Shown: piece by piece, positions 49,663 through 53,785 of the stretch | How positions within the stretch are numbered: position 1 is the first letter of the stretch | How the letters are laid out: the number at the start of each line of letters is the position of its first letter | Assembly: GCF_900452515.1 (NCBI RefSeq) | Contig: NZ_UGNW01000001.1 | Coordinates: forward strand, 620,001-684,000 | Origin: Legionella birminghamensis | Lineage (GTDB): Bacteria > Pseudomonadota > Gammaproteobacteria > Legionellales > Legionellaceae | Direction: 5' to 3' | DNA length: 64,000 nucleotides | Made by a program: the position numbers and the translations under genes | Notes under the pieces: generated by a model | Told to the model about the DNA's origin: nothing | The model's database searches: none | What the model saw: only the letters and a program-made list of their open reading frames with translations

Positions 49663-49691
49663 TTGACTCTATTCAATCAAATGACTAAAAT
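49663..49691 (+). promoter_or_regulatory. Promoter of the RNA/Abi_2 unit
   Basis: TTGACT (49663-49668), a 17-bp spacer and TAAAAT (49686-49691) form a good sigma-70 promoter whose start would fall near 49698, just before the predicted structured RNA. The bases after the -10 (TACATTAA) match those at the second Abi_2 locus (TATATTAA). Confidence 0.65.
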
Positions 49692-49697
49692 TACATT

Positions 49698-49755
49698 AAC
49701 ACAGCCGCTATGCCTCTGATTATTAATAGTCACGCACACTCTAGCGGCTTTTGCT
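49698..49755 (+). ncRNA. Predicted structured leader RNA of the intact Abi_2 gene
   Basis: An 8-bp outer stem (AGCCGCTA 49703-49710 with TAGCGGCT 49742-49749) closes a 31-nt loop. Inside, after 6 nt, TGATTA and TAGTCA form a 6-bp stem with one T-G pair and a TTAA tetraloop, followed by 9 unpaired nt. TTTGCTTATTT follows, so it may also act as a leaky terminator. It ends 22 nt before the Abi_2 start codon. The same geometry with different bases occurs before the second Abi_2 gene, which argues for selection on structure. Its role as antitoxin RNA is inference. Confidence 0.6.
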
Positions 49756-49771
49756 TATTTAGGATCATAAA

Positions 49772-50722
49772 TTGCTTTTTGATAAGCCCGCGCTCTCAAT
49801 CGATCAGTTAGTAACTAAGTTAACAGAAAGAGGGCTAATAGTTGCTAACGCAGAGAGAGCTAAACGATATCTATTAAATATCGGTTATTATCGCTTATCA
49901 GCTTACATGCTCCCATTTCGAAGAAATAATCAAAATCATCTATTTGTGGAAAATGTTAATTTTGATAGTGTTTTGAATCTATACATATTTGATAGAAAGT
50001 TAAGGCTTCTTTTACTTGATGCTATTGAACGTTTAGAAATCTCTCTCAGAGCGCAGCTAATTGATAATACAGTAATGTTGATAGGCCCTCACGGTTACCT
50101 TGATAAGAATAATTTTCATCAAAATTATAACCATCAATGGTTGCTCTCGAAAATTGAAAGTGAGATGGAGGCTTCCAGGGAGGTCTTTATTGAGCATTAC
50201 AAAAGAAAATATACCACGCCTCAATTACCGCCATTCTGGATGGTTATGCAACTATTAACATTTAAGGAAATGACTTTTCTTCTTAGAGGGATTAAAGATT
50301 CAAGTATAGCGAATAATATTGCTGCATATTTAGATGTGAAAAATGACATTCTTTTCTCTTGGAGCCGGAGTATATCGGATTTACGAAATTTATGTGCTCA
50401 TCATAACCGTATTTGGAATAGGGTCTTTGGATCAAAGCCAAAATTACCCAAGAAGGCTCCCTCTAAATGGCCAAGTAATATTTTAAACTCATTCGAATTT
50501 TCTTTATACAATGGAAACCTGACAACGATCGATCCCCAAAGTAGCTTATGCTATCAGATAGTTATTATTTGGCATTGGATGAAAAAAATAAATCCAACTA
50601 GCAATTGGATGCAGCGGTTCTTGAGCATTATTGATGAGCATAAAATTGACGCAGGTTTCATGGGATTTCACCGTGATGCTTTAAGTGACGAGTTTTGGCT
50701 TAAGCCTGAAATTAAACAGTGA
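49772..50722 (+). CDS. Abi_2 family (AbiD/AbiF-type) HEPN abortive-infection protein
   Basis: A 316-residue protein of the Abi_2 group. It begins KPALSIDQLVTKLTERGL, has the RYLLNIGYYRLSAYMLPF motif (about residues 32-49), LYIFDRKLRLLLLDAIERLE (about 70-90) and the HEPN catalytic-type motif RNLCAHHNRIWNR with R205 and H210 (R-x4-H). Members give phage resistance by abortive infection and are thought to be RNases. The start is TTG with AGGATC upstream. It shares the tRNA-Arg island with the ATPase gene and is preceded by a structured RNA. Confidence 0.88.
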   Translation: MLFDKPALSIDQLVTKLTERGLIVANAERAKRYLLNIGYYRLSAYMLPFRRNNQNHLFVENVNFDSVLNLYIFDRKLRLLLLDAIERLEISLRAQLIDNTVMLIGPHGYLDKNNFHQNYNHQWLLSKIESEMEASREVFIEHYKRKYTTPQLPPFWMVMQLLTFKEMTFLLRGIKDSSIANNIAAYLDVKNDILFSWSRSISDLRNLCAHHNRIWNRVFGSKPKLPKKAPSKWPSNILNSFEFSLYNGNLTTIDPQSSLCYQIVIIWHWMKKINPTSNWMQRFLSIIDEHKIDAGFMGFHRDALSDEFWLKPEIKQ

Positions 50723-50840
50723 CGAAAACATGCCGTAATTGCCACCGTTCCATACTGTTTTAGGCAGTTTTAGGCAGTTTTAAATCATATTGATGCATCG
50801 TAAGTTGTTGATTATTAATTTACTTTATGATTAAGCATAA

Positions 50841-50898
50841 GGCTTCGAACCAAGGTGTCGGGGGTTCGAGTCCCTCCGAGCGCGCCATTTAAAATCAA
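50841..50898 (+). repeat. attR-like repeat: duplicate of tRNA-Arg 3' end
   Basis: Identical over 58 bp to 46171-46228 and 4670 bp from it; it lacks the 5' half of the tRNA. It marks the right border of the island. An ISL3-type end begins 8 bp later. Confidence 0.85.
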
Positions 50899-50905
50899 AG
50901 ACTTA

Positions 50906-51478: not shown

Positions 51479-52303
51479 TTAGTGCCGACCGAAACTAGAG
51501 TTTTCCGACTTATTTTTAATCAATCTATAATCAAATGGTGACAGATCTCCCAGTGATTCATGCGGTCTTTCTTCGTTATATTCTTTCATCCATTTCCCGG
51601 TTATTTCCCGAACTTCATTGAGATTTCTGAACAAATAAAAATCCAGTATTTCATTGCGATAAGTTCGATTAAACCGTTCAATAAATGAATTTTGAGTGGG
51701 TTTTCCGGGTTGAATAAACTCAAGAGTAACTCCGTGTTTTTCAGCCCAGTCAGCCAATACCAGAGAGATAAACTCAGGCCCATTATCAAGACGCAGTTTT
51801 GCCGGATATCCTCGACTGGCAGCAATGCTGTCAAGCACCCGGGTAACCCGTCGGGCAGGCAGGCTCAGATCCACTTCAATGGCCAGTGCTTCCCGGTTGA
51901 AATCATCAACCACATTAAATGTCCTGAATCGTCTGCCACAGTTCAATGCGTCGCTCATAAAATCAGCAGACCAAGTATGGTTAACTGTAGCGGGAACCGC
52001 AAGAGGCTCTGGGTTGCGTGTAGGCAATCTCCGCTTTCCTTTACGGCGGATATTCAACTGCAATTCACAGTAAACCCGGTAAACCCTTTTGTGATTCCAT
52101 GTAAACCCCGCCTGCCTCAGTTTGACAAACACTTTCCTGAAGCCATAACGCGGATAGCGTTCGGTAACTTCCATCAGCTCTTTAATCACCGTCTCATCCT
52201 TATTTACTGCCGGCTGATAATAGTAACCTGTGCGACTCAGGCTTAAGGCGGCACAGCTCTGTCTAAGACTCATGCCGTATTCATTTACCAGATAATCAGC
52301 CAT
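51479..52303 (-). CDS. IS3-family transposase OrfB (DDE integrase core)
   Basis: 274 residues with an HTH_21 region (RYPRYGFRKVFVKLRQAGF) and the DDE catalytic residues in TWSADFMSD, LRLDNGPEF and SFIERFNRTYR. It is expected to be made as an OrfAB fusion by -1 frameshifting at the A7G run at 52337-52330 (minus strand), which joins ...EKK of OrfA to ALKPAEKRE and the OrfB frame. The IS51/IS407 group is likely. Confidence 0.9.
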   Translation of the reverse strand: MADYLVNEYGMSLRQSCAALSLSRTGYYYQPAVNKDETVIKELMEVTERYPRYGFRKVFVKLRQAGFTWNHKRVYRVYCELQLNIRRKGKRRLPTRNPEPLAVPATVNHTWSADFMSDALNCGRRFRTFNVVDDFNREALAIEVDLSLPARRVTRVLDSIAASRGYPAKLRLDNGPEFISLVLADWAEKHGVTLEFIQPGKPTQNSFIERFNRTYRNEILDFYLFRNLNEVREITGKWMKEYNEERPHESLGDLSPFDYRLIKNKSENSSFGRH

Positions 52304-52323
52304 TTCCCTTTTCTCTGCCGGCT

Positions 52324-52590
52324 TTAAAGCTTTTTTTCTATCACATCCTTCAACGCACGGTTTTCCAGCGACAAATCAGCGAACATCCGTTTCAGCTTTG
52401 CATTTTCTTCCTCAAGTTGCTTCATTCGTTTAATATCTGAGGCCTCCATCCCGCCATATTTAGCTTTCCAGTTGTAATAGGTGGCATCGGATATTCCATG
52501 CTCACGGCAGACATCCTTTACCAGACGGCCATTCTCTACATATTTTAAAATATTTAATATTTGATGCTCTGTAAATCGGCTGCGTTTCAT
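52324..52590 (-). CDS. IS3-family transposase OrfA
   Basis: 88 residues with an HTH_8-type DNA-binding region (EHQILNILKYVENG, DVCREHGISDATYYNWKAKY) and a C-terminal leucine-zipper-like helix (LEEENAKLKRMFADLSLEN). It ends just after the slippery A-run used for frameshifting into OrfB. Confidence 0.9.
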   Translation of the reverse strand: MKRSRFTEHQILNILKYVENGRLVKDVCREHGISDATYYNWKAKYGGMEASDIKRMKQLEEENAKLKRMFADLSLENRALKDVIEKKL

Positions 52591-52786
52591 CGTTTCTCCT
52601 CCTCTTGCCTATTATGCCGGAGAAACTCTATTTTTGAATGGTGCTATTTTACGGGAGGGTTACAACTTCATTAGCAATTTCATAGATACAAATAACTAAT
52701 TCGCCTCATACGCGCTGACAAGGTTGGGCTAAACGAAGTATAACTAACAATTATTTTGGGCTGCGCTATGCTTATATCAACGTGCT

Positions 52787-53671
52787 CTAATCCTTCCATA
52801 TAACTCTATTTTTCCAATCTAACGGGAACCCCATAAAAATTGGTTCTATTTTATGAGCATCTAACAAATTAATTAACCTGCTTTTGAAATGATTATTTGG
52901 ACTAATTAAATCTAGTGTATAAACCATAAGTATCAAGGTATTATATATTTTTCTTATAGCACGAGTGTCGCGATTGAAATTCTCAACTAGATTAGATGGC
53001 TTTGATTGCGGTATTTTCATAGTCTTGGTCATCTTTTTATTCCAGACCCTACTATGATGTGCACATAGATTGCGCAAATAAGATAAGTGTTCAATGAAAC
53101 TAACAAGAACATCATAGTCAATGCTGTACGTTTCTGAAATTTTATTACGCGATTGCGTAGATTGCATGCATTTCAACCATCTTGATAATAATCCAAATGA
53201 CATCACTTCGCAGATTGCCCATATTGGTGGTGTTATATTATTTTTCTTAAAATGATCGATAAAAAGTTCGTCGTTGCGTTTGAGCTCTTTCTCCAATGTA
53301 ATTAGGTTTTGGGCATGCCAAAATGAATTATTACTCAAATTACAATCCATAAAAGCATGTGGGCCATGATATTGGGAAAAATAGTATGCCCACTGAGTTC
53401 GAATAGAAATCTCTATGCGTTCTATACTATCCAAAAGTAACAAACGTAATTCACGATCAAAAATGTATAGATTTAAAATATCAGAAAATTTTGTTTCTTT
53501 CTTAAAAAGATTTGTATTGTCTTCTTTATAAAATGGGAACCAATAGCCAGATAAACGATAGTAATTTAAATGTTACAGATAGTGTGCAGCACTATCATCT
53601 ATAATCAGACCTCGATCAGTCAATAAGTCTATTTGCTGTTGGATAGTAAGGAATGGCTTAGTAAATTCCAT
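52787..53671 (-). pseudogene. Second Abi_2 (AbiF-type) gene with one nonsense codon
   Basis: Reading from ATG 53671, the frame encodes MEFTKPFLTIQQQIDLLTDR, then SAAHYL, a TAA at 53575-53573, and continues in the same frame with HLNYYRLSGYWFPF, LRLLLLDSIERIEI and LRNLCAHHSRVWN to a stop at 52787. Family members have a glutamine or similar at this point, so a CAA-to-TAA change is likely. Otherwise all motifs, including the R-x4-H HEPN pair, are intact over 294 codons. Restart at 53443 would lack the N-terminal third. Sequence is well diverged from the intact copy. Confidence 0.85.
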
Positions 53672-53685
53672 TTTTATACCTGTAA

Positions 53686-53743
53686 AAAAAGTAACCCGTC
53701 GGTTTGAGGATACTCAGATGAGCATAGCCTTGACGGGTTTTCT
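53686..53743 (-). ncRNA. Predicted structured leader RNA of the second Abi_2 gene
   Basis: On the minus strand AACCCGTC (53739-53732) pairs with GACGGGTT (53700-53693) around a 31-nt loop. Inside, 6 nt, a 6-bp stem (ATGCTC/GAGTAT, one G-T pair), an ATCT tetraloop and 9 nt repeat exactly the geometry of the RNA at 49698-49755. ACTTTTTTTACAGG follows and the gene ATG is 21 nt after the stem. Promoter: TTGTGA (53779-53774), 17 bp, AATAAT (53756-53751). Confidence 0.6.
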
Positions 53744-53785
53744 TAATATAATTATTGTACACTTCTAGAATTTTCACAAGTCTTT

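What the first reader, a model, noticed from the sequence alone, without database searches (positions are those of the whole stretch)
49663..53779. Two diverged Abi_2 genes share a cis-encoded structured RNA of identical geometry
Seen: before the intact Abi_2 gene (start 49772) and before the broken one (start 53671) there is the same series: sigma-70 promoter with 17-bp spacing, TA(C/T)ATTAA after the -10, an 8-bp outer stem, 6 nt, a 6-bp inner stem with one G-T pair, a 4-nt loop, 9 nt, the outer stem again, a T-rich tail, and the start codon 21-22 nt later. The stem bases differ almost completely, so pairing is kept by compensatory change. Known: Abi_2 proteins are HEPN abortive-infection factors; from memory, recent work links AbiF-type proteins to cognate non-coding RNA antitoxins and to the ancestry of Cas13 (verify). 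Inference: these are HEPN toxin-RNA antitoxin pairs in Legionella.
Basis: partly seen in the sequence, partly recalled or inferred. Interest (0 to 1): 0.88.

Follow-up and report, generated by a model that had tools for sequence, protein, structure and literature searches.

The report
RNA antitoxins beside two AbiF genes
Two bacterial self-poisoning genes each have a small folded RNA in front of them that very likely keeps the poison switched off, a system already known in other bacteria; the same folded RNA also turns up without the poison gene in viruses of bacteria, which may use it to disarm this defence.

Summary
In detail: both Abi_2 genes have the same promoter-hairpin layout. A 3-bp middle helix was overlooked, and "stems differ almost completely" is too strong. 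The RNAs are divergent relatives of the known abiF RNA (Rfam RF03085), both under Rfam's cut-off; the protein matches the RNA-bound AbiF of PDB 8VZ6 (E 3.9e-44). In 62 related RNAs all 9 predicted pairs show compensatory change. A covariance model from them finds only these two sites in the window (E <= 1) and an RNA in 43 of 45 further named AbiF loci that were not seeds. In 143 Legionellaceae genomes 46 of 51 full-length Abi_2 frames have it, 4 more a divergent form; 33 of 79 RNAs lack a full-length toxin. 113 of 114 hairpins run into a U-tract, so the antitoxin probably doubles as attenuator. So: an AbiF toxin with RNA antitoxin, known in kind; the second toxin is broken, its RNA intact.

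The surprise lies outside the window: the RNA core occurs on viral contigs without toxin (Abi_2 within 2.5 kb at 2 of 148 sites; in 0 of 50 whole records), with covarying outer stems, often without U-tract, also in 22 named mycobacteriophages. I read these as antitoxins that phages use against AbiF: inferred, testable, not found in the papers searched.

The parts
49663..49691 (+). sigma-70-type promoter of RNA 1 (TTGACT, 17 nt, TAAAAT)
   Evidence: scan, 10 of 12 matches; DNA homology with the system of G006 (protein 98% identical) begins just upstream, at 49641
49696..49760 (+). abiF-type RNA 1: leader, outer stem 49703-49710/49742-49749, middle stem 49711-49713/49734-49736, apical stem 49717-49722/49727-49732, U-rich tail
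   Evidence: model R1 49.7 bits; RF03085 18.9 bits, cut-off 37
49761..49764 (+). likely ribosome site AGGA, 7 nt before the start codon and 3' of the U-rich tail
   Evidence: sequence
49772..50722 (+). intact Abi_2/AbiF toxin, 316 aa, start TTG, HEPN motif RNLCAH
   Evidence: PF07751 E 2.4e-52; PADLOC AbiD E 5.9e-66; 8vz6_A E 3.9e-44
53751..53779 (-). promoter of RNA 2 (TTGTGA, 17 nt, AATAAT)
   Evidence: 9 of 12 matches
53683..53745 (-). abiF-type RNA 2: outer stem 53739-53732/53700-53693, middle stem 53730-53728/53709-53707, apical stem 53725-53720/53715-53710, U-tract
   Evidence: model R1 56.1 bits; RF03085 25.7 bits, E 0.0086, best of 6 matches
52787..53671 (-). second Abi_2 gene, with one in-frame TAA
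   Evidence: the open part 52787-53443 matches PF07751 47-184, E 3.3e-36
46141..46217 (+). tRNA-Arg (tcg), an insertion hotspot
   Evidence: hotspot by comparison with G001 and G102
50841..50906 (+). 66-nt direct repeat of 46171-46236 (97%), which holds the 3' end of tRNA-Arg; far end of the islet with toxin 1
   Evidence: like repeats flank AbiF in G001 and G102
46886..49567 (+). 893-aa SMC/RecF-like ATPase inside the same islet; a neighbour, not shown to belong to the system
   Evidence: no homologue in the 10 other genomes of the genus at E <= 1e-20

Best explanation
Each site is an AbiF-type toxin gene with its own RNA antitoxin. A promoter makes a short RNA of about 55-65 nt with three helices (outer 8 bp, middle 3 bp, apical 6 bp) and an unpaired strand between middle and outer helix. 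Most transcripts should stop at the U-tract right after the outer stem, which gives free antitoxin; some read through into the toxin, whose ribosome site lies beyond the U-tract. The RNA binds the HEPN dimer and keeps its RNase off. When the short RNA runs down, for example during phage infection, the RNase is freed and stops the cell. Shown here: the fold, its covariation, its place before AbiF genes of several phyla, the U-tract, RNA class following protein clade, RNAs found without intact toxin. Inferred from characterised relatives: termination, binding, neutralisation, trigger. In the window pair 1 looks complete; in pair 2 the toxin gene is broken and the RNA looks intact.
For: Covariation: 62 sequences, 93.4% of cells paired against 78.5% shuffled, 80 double-change cells against 14.0, 0 of 500 shuffles as high; the middle helix, which the stem finder did not use, is 100% paired against 74.5%, 38 double-change cells against 8.1; RNAalifold finds 9 pairs, all 9 compensated. 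Association: model R1 in 78 of 80 named loci, 43 of 45 if the 35 seeds are left out; 46 of 51 full-length Abi_2 frames in 143 Legionellaceae genomes, 4 of the other 5 with a divergent hairpin of like layout by eye. Asymmetry: 33 of 79 RNAs lack a full-length toxin, 1 of 51 toxins lacks any RNA. Co-evolution: middle-stem class changes 12 times on the protein tree, minimum of 200 shuffles 36. Terminator: 113 of 114 different RNAs have 6 or more T in the 10 nt after the stem, background 2.7 per 10, 0 of 114. Protein: match to 8vz6_A over residues 3-259; R204, N205, H209, H210 invariant in 44 proteins. Relatives: C. difficile RCd22 binds and neutralises AbiF (PMC12373285).
Against: No transcript, binding or toxicity data for these copies. 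Both RNAs fall under Rfam's cut-off. Tail 1 is the weaker (TTTTGCTTATTT), and the terminator scan reports neither hairpin; it allows loops of 3-8 only. Copies decay: toxin gene 2 has a stop, and the third Abi_2 of this genome has its first ~50 residues in another frame than the rest. Outer-stem pairing is partly by selection, since the stem finder used it; 4 of 66 nonredundant RNAs were left out of the alignment, of which L005 lacks the middle stem. 13 of R1's 62 seeds come from Legionellaceae, so the 46 of 51 is not fully independent of the model. The asymmetry counts related genomes, not independent losses. Two named AbiF loci (L147, L159) have no R1 match, and an RNA-less AbiF clade exists (L053, L076, L085, L088).
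Confidence: 0.86

Rival explanations
1. The hairpin is only a leader terminator/attenuator that keeps toxin expression low; it does not touch the protein.
For: U-tract in 113 of 114 RNAs beside toxins; start codon 21-22 nt after the stem; PMC12373285 reports premature termination as part of the control.
Against: A terminator needs no conserved 3-bp middle helix and internal-loop strand; RNA class follows protein clade; on viral contigs the outer stem covaries without a toxin, and only 58 of 98 sites keep the U-tract; a relative binds its RNA (RCd22, PMC12373285; 8VZ6 as described in PMC12737573).
Confidence: 0.08
2. The RNA is a guide, as in Cas13, and directs the HEPN nuclease to targets.
For: AbiF is proposed as the ancestor of Cas13 (PMC12165695, PMC12737573, passages).
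Against: No spacer-like array beside these genes (one R1 match each); the stems that vary do so in step; PMC12948488 (passage) says that AbiF lacks RNA-targeting specificity.
Confidence: 0.02
3. The solitary viral RNAs are relics of lost AbiF genes, or regulators or parts of phage genes, and not counter-defence.
For: Bacterial orphans often have Abi_2 scraps downstream (e.g. L210, L215, L216); by eye two viral groups (L286/L309/L320/L379, one sequence; L410) keep a dozen codons that look like an AbiF start; AbiF-carrying prophages exist (PMC12373285); 16 of 108 viral sites lie inside a frame of 120 aa or more, and L426 is probably a chance match in a gene.
Against: No Abi_2 in 50 of 50 whole viral records and none within 2.5 kb at 146 of 148 sites; 29 different 5' arms, 90 of 98 sites with 6 or more pairs against 29% when flanks are dealt anew; the next genes fall into 67 families for 81 sites, largest 3; kept in 22 mycobacteriophages of one group.
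Confidence: 0.35

Closest known systems
AbiF_Cd / RCd22 of Clostridioides difficile phi027 (PMC12373285)
   Same: Abi_2 toxin with HEPN RNxxxH; promoter, structured abiF RNA and toxin in one unit; read-through model.
   Different: RCd22 has two abiF motifs and a separate terminator, start codon 168 nt after the RNA start; here one hairpin whose own outer stem runs into the U-tract, start codon about 75 nt after the likely RNA start (inferred from the promoter).
PbAbiF with its RNA, PDB 8VZ6 (described in PMC12737573, passages; protein)
   Same: Protein homologous over residues 3-259, R and H of the active site kept; one RNA per monomer according to the review.
   Different: The RNA letters of 8VZ6 were not available here, so no contact could be compared.
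Rfam RF03085 abiF RNA
   Same: Outer stem, one-base bulge (copy 2), 3-bp stem, start of the loop, unpaired strand before the outer stem (alignments).
   Different: Extra 6-bp apical hairpin; both copies score below 37 bits; 29 of 79 family RNAs reach it.
Type III toxin-antitoxin systems (ToxIN, CptNI, TenpNI; as described in PMC12373285)
   Same: RNA antitoxin upstream of an RNase toxin with a terminator between.
   Different: No tandem repeats here; toxin of another family.
RNA anti-CRISPRs, solitary repeat units (PMC10651486, abstract); phage pseudo-ToxI (search listing of PMC5449768, rest recalled)
   Same: For the viral RNAs: a lone copy of a defence RNA on a phage.
   Different: Those act on CRISPR-Cas or ToxN; nothing on AbiF was found in the papers searched.

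Membership tests
AbiF (Abi_2) with abiF RNA | Abi_2 domain with HEPN RNxxxH | tested here: met
   Toxin 1: PF07751 E 2.4e-52, RNLCAH, invariant R204/N205/H209/H210. Copy 2: domain present, gene broken.
AbiF (Abi_2) with abiF RNA | homologous structured RNA directly upstream | tested here: met
   R1 49.7 and 56.1 bits (both are among the 62 seeds); RF03085 is the best-scoring Rfam family at both sites; bridged by relatives over the cut-off.
Rfam RF03085 | curated gathering score of 37 bits | tested here: not met
   18.9 and 25.7 bits. Not RF03085 by Rfam's own rule; homology rests on R1 and intermediates.
AbiF (Abi_2) with abiF RNA | RNA binds and neutralises the toxin | not testable with these tools
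   Shown for relatives (PMC12373285).
Type III toxin-antitoxin | tandem-repeat antitoxin RNA | tested here: not met
   One R1 match per window gene; pairs of RNAs exist elsewhere (G376, G344, G339). Works like type III; not filed as canonical type III.
Type III toxin-antitoxin | terminator between antitoxin and toxin | tested here: inconclusive
   U-tract after the hairpin in 113 of 114 RNAs, 7 and 8 T of 10 in the window copies, but the terminator scan lists neither (loop limit) and termination was not measured.
CRISPR-Cas13 | repeat-spacer array or variable guide | tested here: not met
   One R1 match per gene in the window.
RNA-based counter-defence (viral RNAs) | lone copy of the defence RNA on a phage, without the effector | tested here: met
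   Abi_2 piece within 2.5 kb at 2 of 148 sites (28 sites have under 1.1 kb of downstream DNA); 0 of 50 records with Abi_2.
RNA-based counter-defence (viral RNAs) | inhibits the effector | not testable with these tools

The most novel reading that the evidence does not exclude
Phages of several hosts carry solitary abiF RNAs, antitoxins without a toxin, some of them inside tRNA arrays, which bind the AbiF of an infected cell and stop it: an RNA-only counter-defence against the proposed ancestor of Cas13. RNA class (middle-stem sequence) would predict which AbiF each one blocks.
Probability: 0.58. Interest if true: 0.82.

Novelty: new member of a known kind. Interest (0 to 1): 0.56.

Why it matters
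For the window itself: Legionellaceae carry many AbiF/RNA pairs, of which Rfam's cut-off misses most (50 of 79 RNAs); two unlike copies lie side by side because a tRNA-Arg gene is an insertion hotspot; and the antitoxin is probably its own terminator. Beyond it: if the lone viral RNAs are AbiF antitoxins, phages can beat this defence with an RNA of about 55 nt, the matching rule between RNA class and AbiF clade can be tested with existing phages, and the role of AbiF as anti-phage defence gains evolutionary evidence (PMC12373285 calls that role challenging to show in C. difficile).

Tried and rejected
Rejected: a chance hairpin pair; a guide RNA; a leader terminator only. The AbiEi/AbiEii neighbours of orphan RNAs (L219, L222, L224) looked like a new AbiE-RNA partnership, but the other 5 of the 8 close AbiEii homologues have no R1 match of 37 bits within 2 kb, and the shared flank is conserved about as well as the RNA (by eye): common descent is enough. 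Bro-N genes after the RNA and integrase genes facing it were seen too few times to build on. R1 matches of about 36 nt look like generic terminators, often on both strands, and were dropped; the 79 RNAs counted are those with >= 37 bits and >= 52 nt, and one search used filters that lose weak matches. By the 600-nt rule G122:C7 counts as an RNA without toxin although a PF07751 scrap follows it. Dropped rows: L005, L079, L111 and L177 of 66 nonredundant RNAs before alignment A2; 14 loci before the cores and the T counts (6 without an RNA, 8 where the stem finder failed: L011, L091, L106, L117, L122, L147, L172, L178). RNA classes were set by hand for L079, L091, L106, L117, L122, L172 and L178. 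In alignment A3 the middle helix is fixed by the search patterns, so the outer helix alone is counted as evidence. R1 at E <= 1e-4 misses 4 of the 50 viral records: three mycobacteriophages, whose outer stem is unlike and which have no U-tract, and L426, probably a chance match. Searches of isolate phages with five other viral RNAs gave one weak place each for two and nothing for three. No tRNA gene lies in the 17 kb fetched around AbiF of G006 and of G069, nor in the 16 kb around the third Abi_2 of G000. Structure prediction was not used, since the sequence match to 8vz6 suffices.
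Full report
What is there. Both hairpins stand at the stated places with the stated geometry (counted base by base), behind promoters with 17-nt spacers. Each fold is stable for its composition. Rfam's best family at both sites is RF03085, abiF RNA, at 18.9 and 25.7 bits, under its cut-off of 37. Gene 1 is an intact Abi_2 protein of 316 aa, homologous over residues 3-259 to the RNA-bound AbiF of PDB 8VZ6. 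Gene 2 has one in-frame TAA. A third Abi_2 in this genome (G000:C1:3035894) also has the RNA (R1 56.8 bits), but its first ~50 residues lie in another frame than the rest.

Is the structure real? I collected Abi_2 loci from the genus (8 of 11 genomes), the family (55 of 143), a sample of the class (29 of 276) and named records (best 80 of 577 kept). 62 of 66 nonredundant upstream RNAs were aligned. RNAalifold, given no structure, returns outer and middle stem, 9 pairs, each with compensatory changes. On the structure that I named, 93.4% of cells pair (78.5% shuffled) and the covariation score is 0.402 (0.121 shuffled, at most 0.085 when slid). My stem finder had used the outer stem, so that part is biased; the middle stem had no part in it and is paired in all 62, with C-G, A-U and U-A at its first pair, covariation 0.589 against 0.109. 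Of the four RNAs left out, L005 lacks it. A model, R1, was built from this. It finds two places in the window (both are seeds) and an RNA at 78 of 80 named loci, 43 of the 45 that were not seeds; L147 and L159 have none, L178 is cut by the contig end (30.2 bits). The records are named as Pseudomonadota, Actinomycetota, Spirochaetota, Bacteroidota, Acidobacteriota, Chloroflexota and others, many of them MAGs.

Association and asymmetry. In 143 Legionellaceae genomes, 46 of 51 full-length Abi_2 frames have an R1 match of 37 bits within 600 nt upstream; 13 of R1's 62 seeds come from this family. One of the 51, G000:C1:3035894, passes by PF07751 although its start is in another frame. Of the other five, G007, G008:206764, G074 and G126 have a divergent hairpin with the same leader and U-tract (by eye), and one, G017:C17, has nothing. 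Of 79 RNAs (>= 37 bits, >= 52 nt), 46 lie before full-length frames, 9 before partial or broken ones, 24 before none by the 600-nt rule; some of these keep Abi_2 scraps. RNAs without a full-length toxin are common (33 of 79), toxins without RNA rare (1 of 51). That is what an antitoxin predicts: the toxin can be lost first, the antitoxin not. The genomes are related, so these are not independent events. Copy 2 in the window is such a case. Rfam's cut-off recognises 29 of the 79.

Specificity. On a tree of 141 AbiF proteins the middle-stem class (CGC, AGG, AGC, TGC; 124 rows, 7 of them classed by hand) changes 12 times; 200 shuffles need at least 36. The two window pairs fall in different clades: pair 1 with other TGC RNAs, among them an Alcaligenaceae MAG and Oligella (8 rows, support 89, not starred), pair 2, through its open relative L043 (93% at the DNA level), with the AGG class. 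They look like separate arrivals, and their RNAs may not cross-protect (inference).

Attenuator. In 114 different RNAs beside toxins, 113 have 6 or more T in the 10 nt after the outer stem; upstream background is 2.7 per 10 and none of 114 reaches 6 (14 loci had been dropped before, see Tried and rejected). A finder that ignores T agrees on the stem in 131 of 140. In the window the ribosome sites (AGGA, AGGT) lie 3' of the tail. C. difficile's RCd22 has two motifs and a separate terminator (PMC12373285); a single hairpin that is antitoxin and terminator in one is the likely arrangement here. Termination is inferred, not measured; tail 1 is the weaker one and the terminator scan, which allows only short loops, lists neither.

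Why two copies side by side. tRNA-Arg (46141-46217) has its 3' end repeated at 50841-50906 (66 nt, 97%), enclosing an ATPase gene and pair 1. In G001 the same tRNA-Arg has three such repeats over 14 kb beside it, and in G102 one; AbiF lies inside both. In G006 a 96%-identical stretch runs from 49641, just before the promoter, to 50906, the end of the repeat: promoter, RNA, toxin and attachment repeat are shared as a block, though no tRNA lies in the 17 kb fetched there, nor around AbiF of G069. So the tRNA is a hotspot in at least three genomes. An IS3-type element (about 51463-52664) sits between two stretches that are contiguous in G102.

Outside the window. Of 148 sites, 137 show no Abi_2 piece in 400-1800 nt downstream, 9 run into a contig end, 1 is partial there, 1 is full; a more sensitive rerun over 2.5 kb on both sides and strands finds a piece at the same number, 2 of 148. 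Of 50 whole viral records over 20 kb (50 of the 59 that I listed), none has Abi_2 and 46 are found again by R1. The 3' arm of the outer stem lies outside the patterns: 90 of 98 different sites have 6 or more pairs, 29% when the 3' flanks are dealt anew, with 29 different 5' arms. In 36 RNAs chosen by hand (29 from viral contigs, 7 from named phages) the outer helix pairs in 88.5% of cells (69.4% shuffled), 42 double-change cells against 11.5, covariation 0.514 against 0.183. Only 58 of 98 keep the U-tract. The next genes are of 67 families for 81 sites. A tRNA lies within 200 nt at 14 of 108 sites, background 3.8%; 6 of the 14 are one related group. Named isolates: 28 records of 22 mycobacteriophages of one related group, in Faith1 between gene 105 and tRNA-Pro inside a tRNA array; Brevundimonas phage Bajun, again in a tRNA array; Sulfurimonas phage SNW-1; the last two have the full fold by eye only. 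Some records hold arrays: three RNAs within 400 nt in G453, two side by side in G421, G433 and G443. In G130 a prophage (tail fibre, endolysin and Sak4-like genes) carries a 130-bp copy, 100% identical, of promoter, antitoxin RNA and toxin start of that genome's own full-length AbiF. An outer stem kept by covariation without toxin, without partner gene and often without terminator points to the antitoxin function itself, hence counter-defence. Against it: two viral groups look like relics by eye, and nothing shows expression or binding. I give counter-defence 0.58.

Known or new. AbiF with RNA antitoxin is known: C. difficile (PMC12373285), and PbAbiF with its RNA (8VZ6; described in the review PMC12737573, passages read; the original paper was not available). 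abiF RNA in a cyanophage was reported as an sRNA, with no antitoxin reading in the passages that I read (PMC9964418, which also counts three bacteriophage genomes in Rfam). My searches for AbiF with RNA and toxin-antitoxin terms, for AbiF in Legionella and for AbiF with anti-defence or decoy terms listed no paper that I could see to describe lone abiF RNAs as counter-defence; I read only some of the papers listed, and most subscription papers are not held, so this is weak evidence of novelty. Nearest precedents: solitary-repeat RNA anti-CRISPRs (PMC10651486, abstract) and an RNA inhibitor of Cas13 named in PMC12948488 (passage).

Verdict. The finding stands; it is a new member of a known kind. 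Its wider interest is the lone viral RNA.

Noticed in passing
L076, L085, L088, L053: An RNA-less AbiF clade (with four 'divergent hairpin' rows as its neighbours): in L076 and L085 a type I specificity gene (hsdS) lies just upstream, in L088 hsdS and a possible second HEPN gene; hsdM lies downstream in L085. Possibly held in check by the restriction complex, like PrrC (recalled), instead of by an RNA.
   Followed up: partly
L252 (G339) and L261 (G292): abiF-type RNAs directly before a type I restriction gene (hsdR, with two RNAs in a row) and before a Fic gene; neither genome is among the 29 with Abi_2.
   Followed up: partly
L219, L222, L224; L232; L225: Orphan abiF RNAs beside AbiEi/AbiEii genes (Pfam for L219, L225 and L232; L222 and L224 by likeness); G000 has the same AbiE locus 4-5 kb from its third AbiF.
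   Followed up: partly
L227, L231, L216; L217, L236: Orphan RNAs before Bro-N genes, and facing integrase genes (Pfam for L227, L216 and L217; L231 and L236 by likeness).
   Followed up: no
L005, L011, L033, L040, L067: A divergent hairpin (CCCGCTC...GAGTGGG, no bulge) with the same leader and U-tract before AbiF, missed by R1 at 37 bits; four of the five are in the tree, next to the RNA-less clade.
   Followed up: partly
window 46886-49567: 893-aa SMC/RecF-like ATPase sharing the islet with pair 1, partial PADLOC matches to LmuB, AbiLi and PtuA; its C-terminal stretch has an RxxxxxxH that may be HEPN-like (by eye).
   Followed up: no
window 46508-46540 and 46701-46733: 33-nt inverted repeat, 94%, just inside the tRNA-Arg islet.
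   Followed up: no
window 52183-52325: Rfam isrN match (50 bits) that lies in the transposase gene of an IS3-type element; perhaps shared IS sequence.
   Followed up: no
L014, L070, L071: A distant Abi_2-like family (about 28-184 of PF07751, about 240-260 aa), six rows, with no R1 RNA next to any.
   Followed up: no
L282 (G001): tRNA-Arg with three 3'-end repeats over 14 kb: a tandem array of islets that share terminal sequence beside the repeats.
   Followed up: partly
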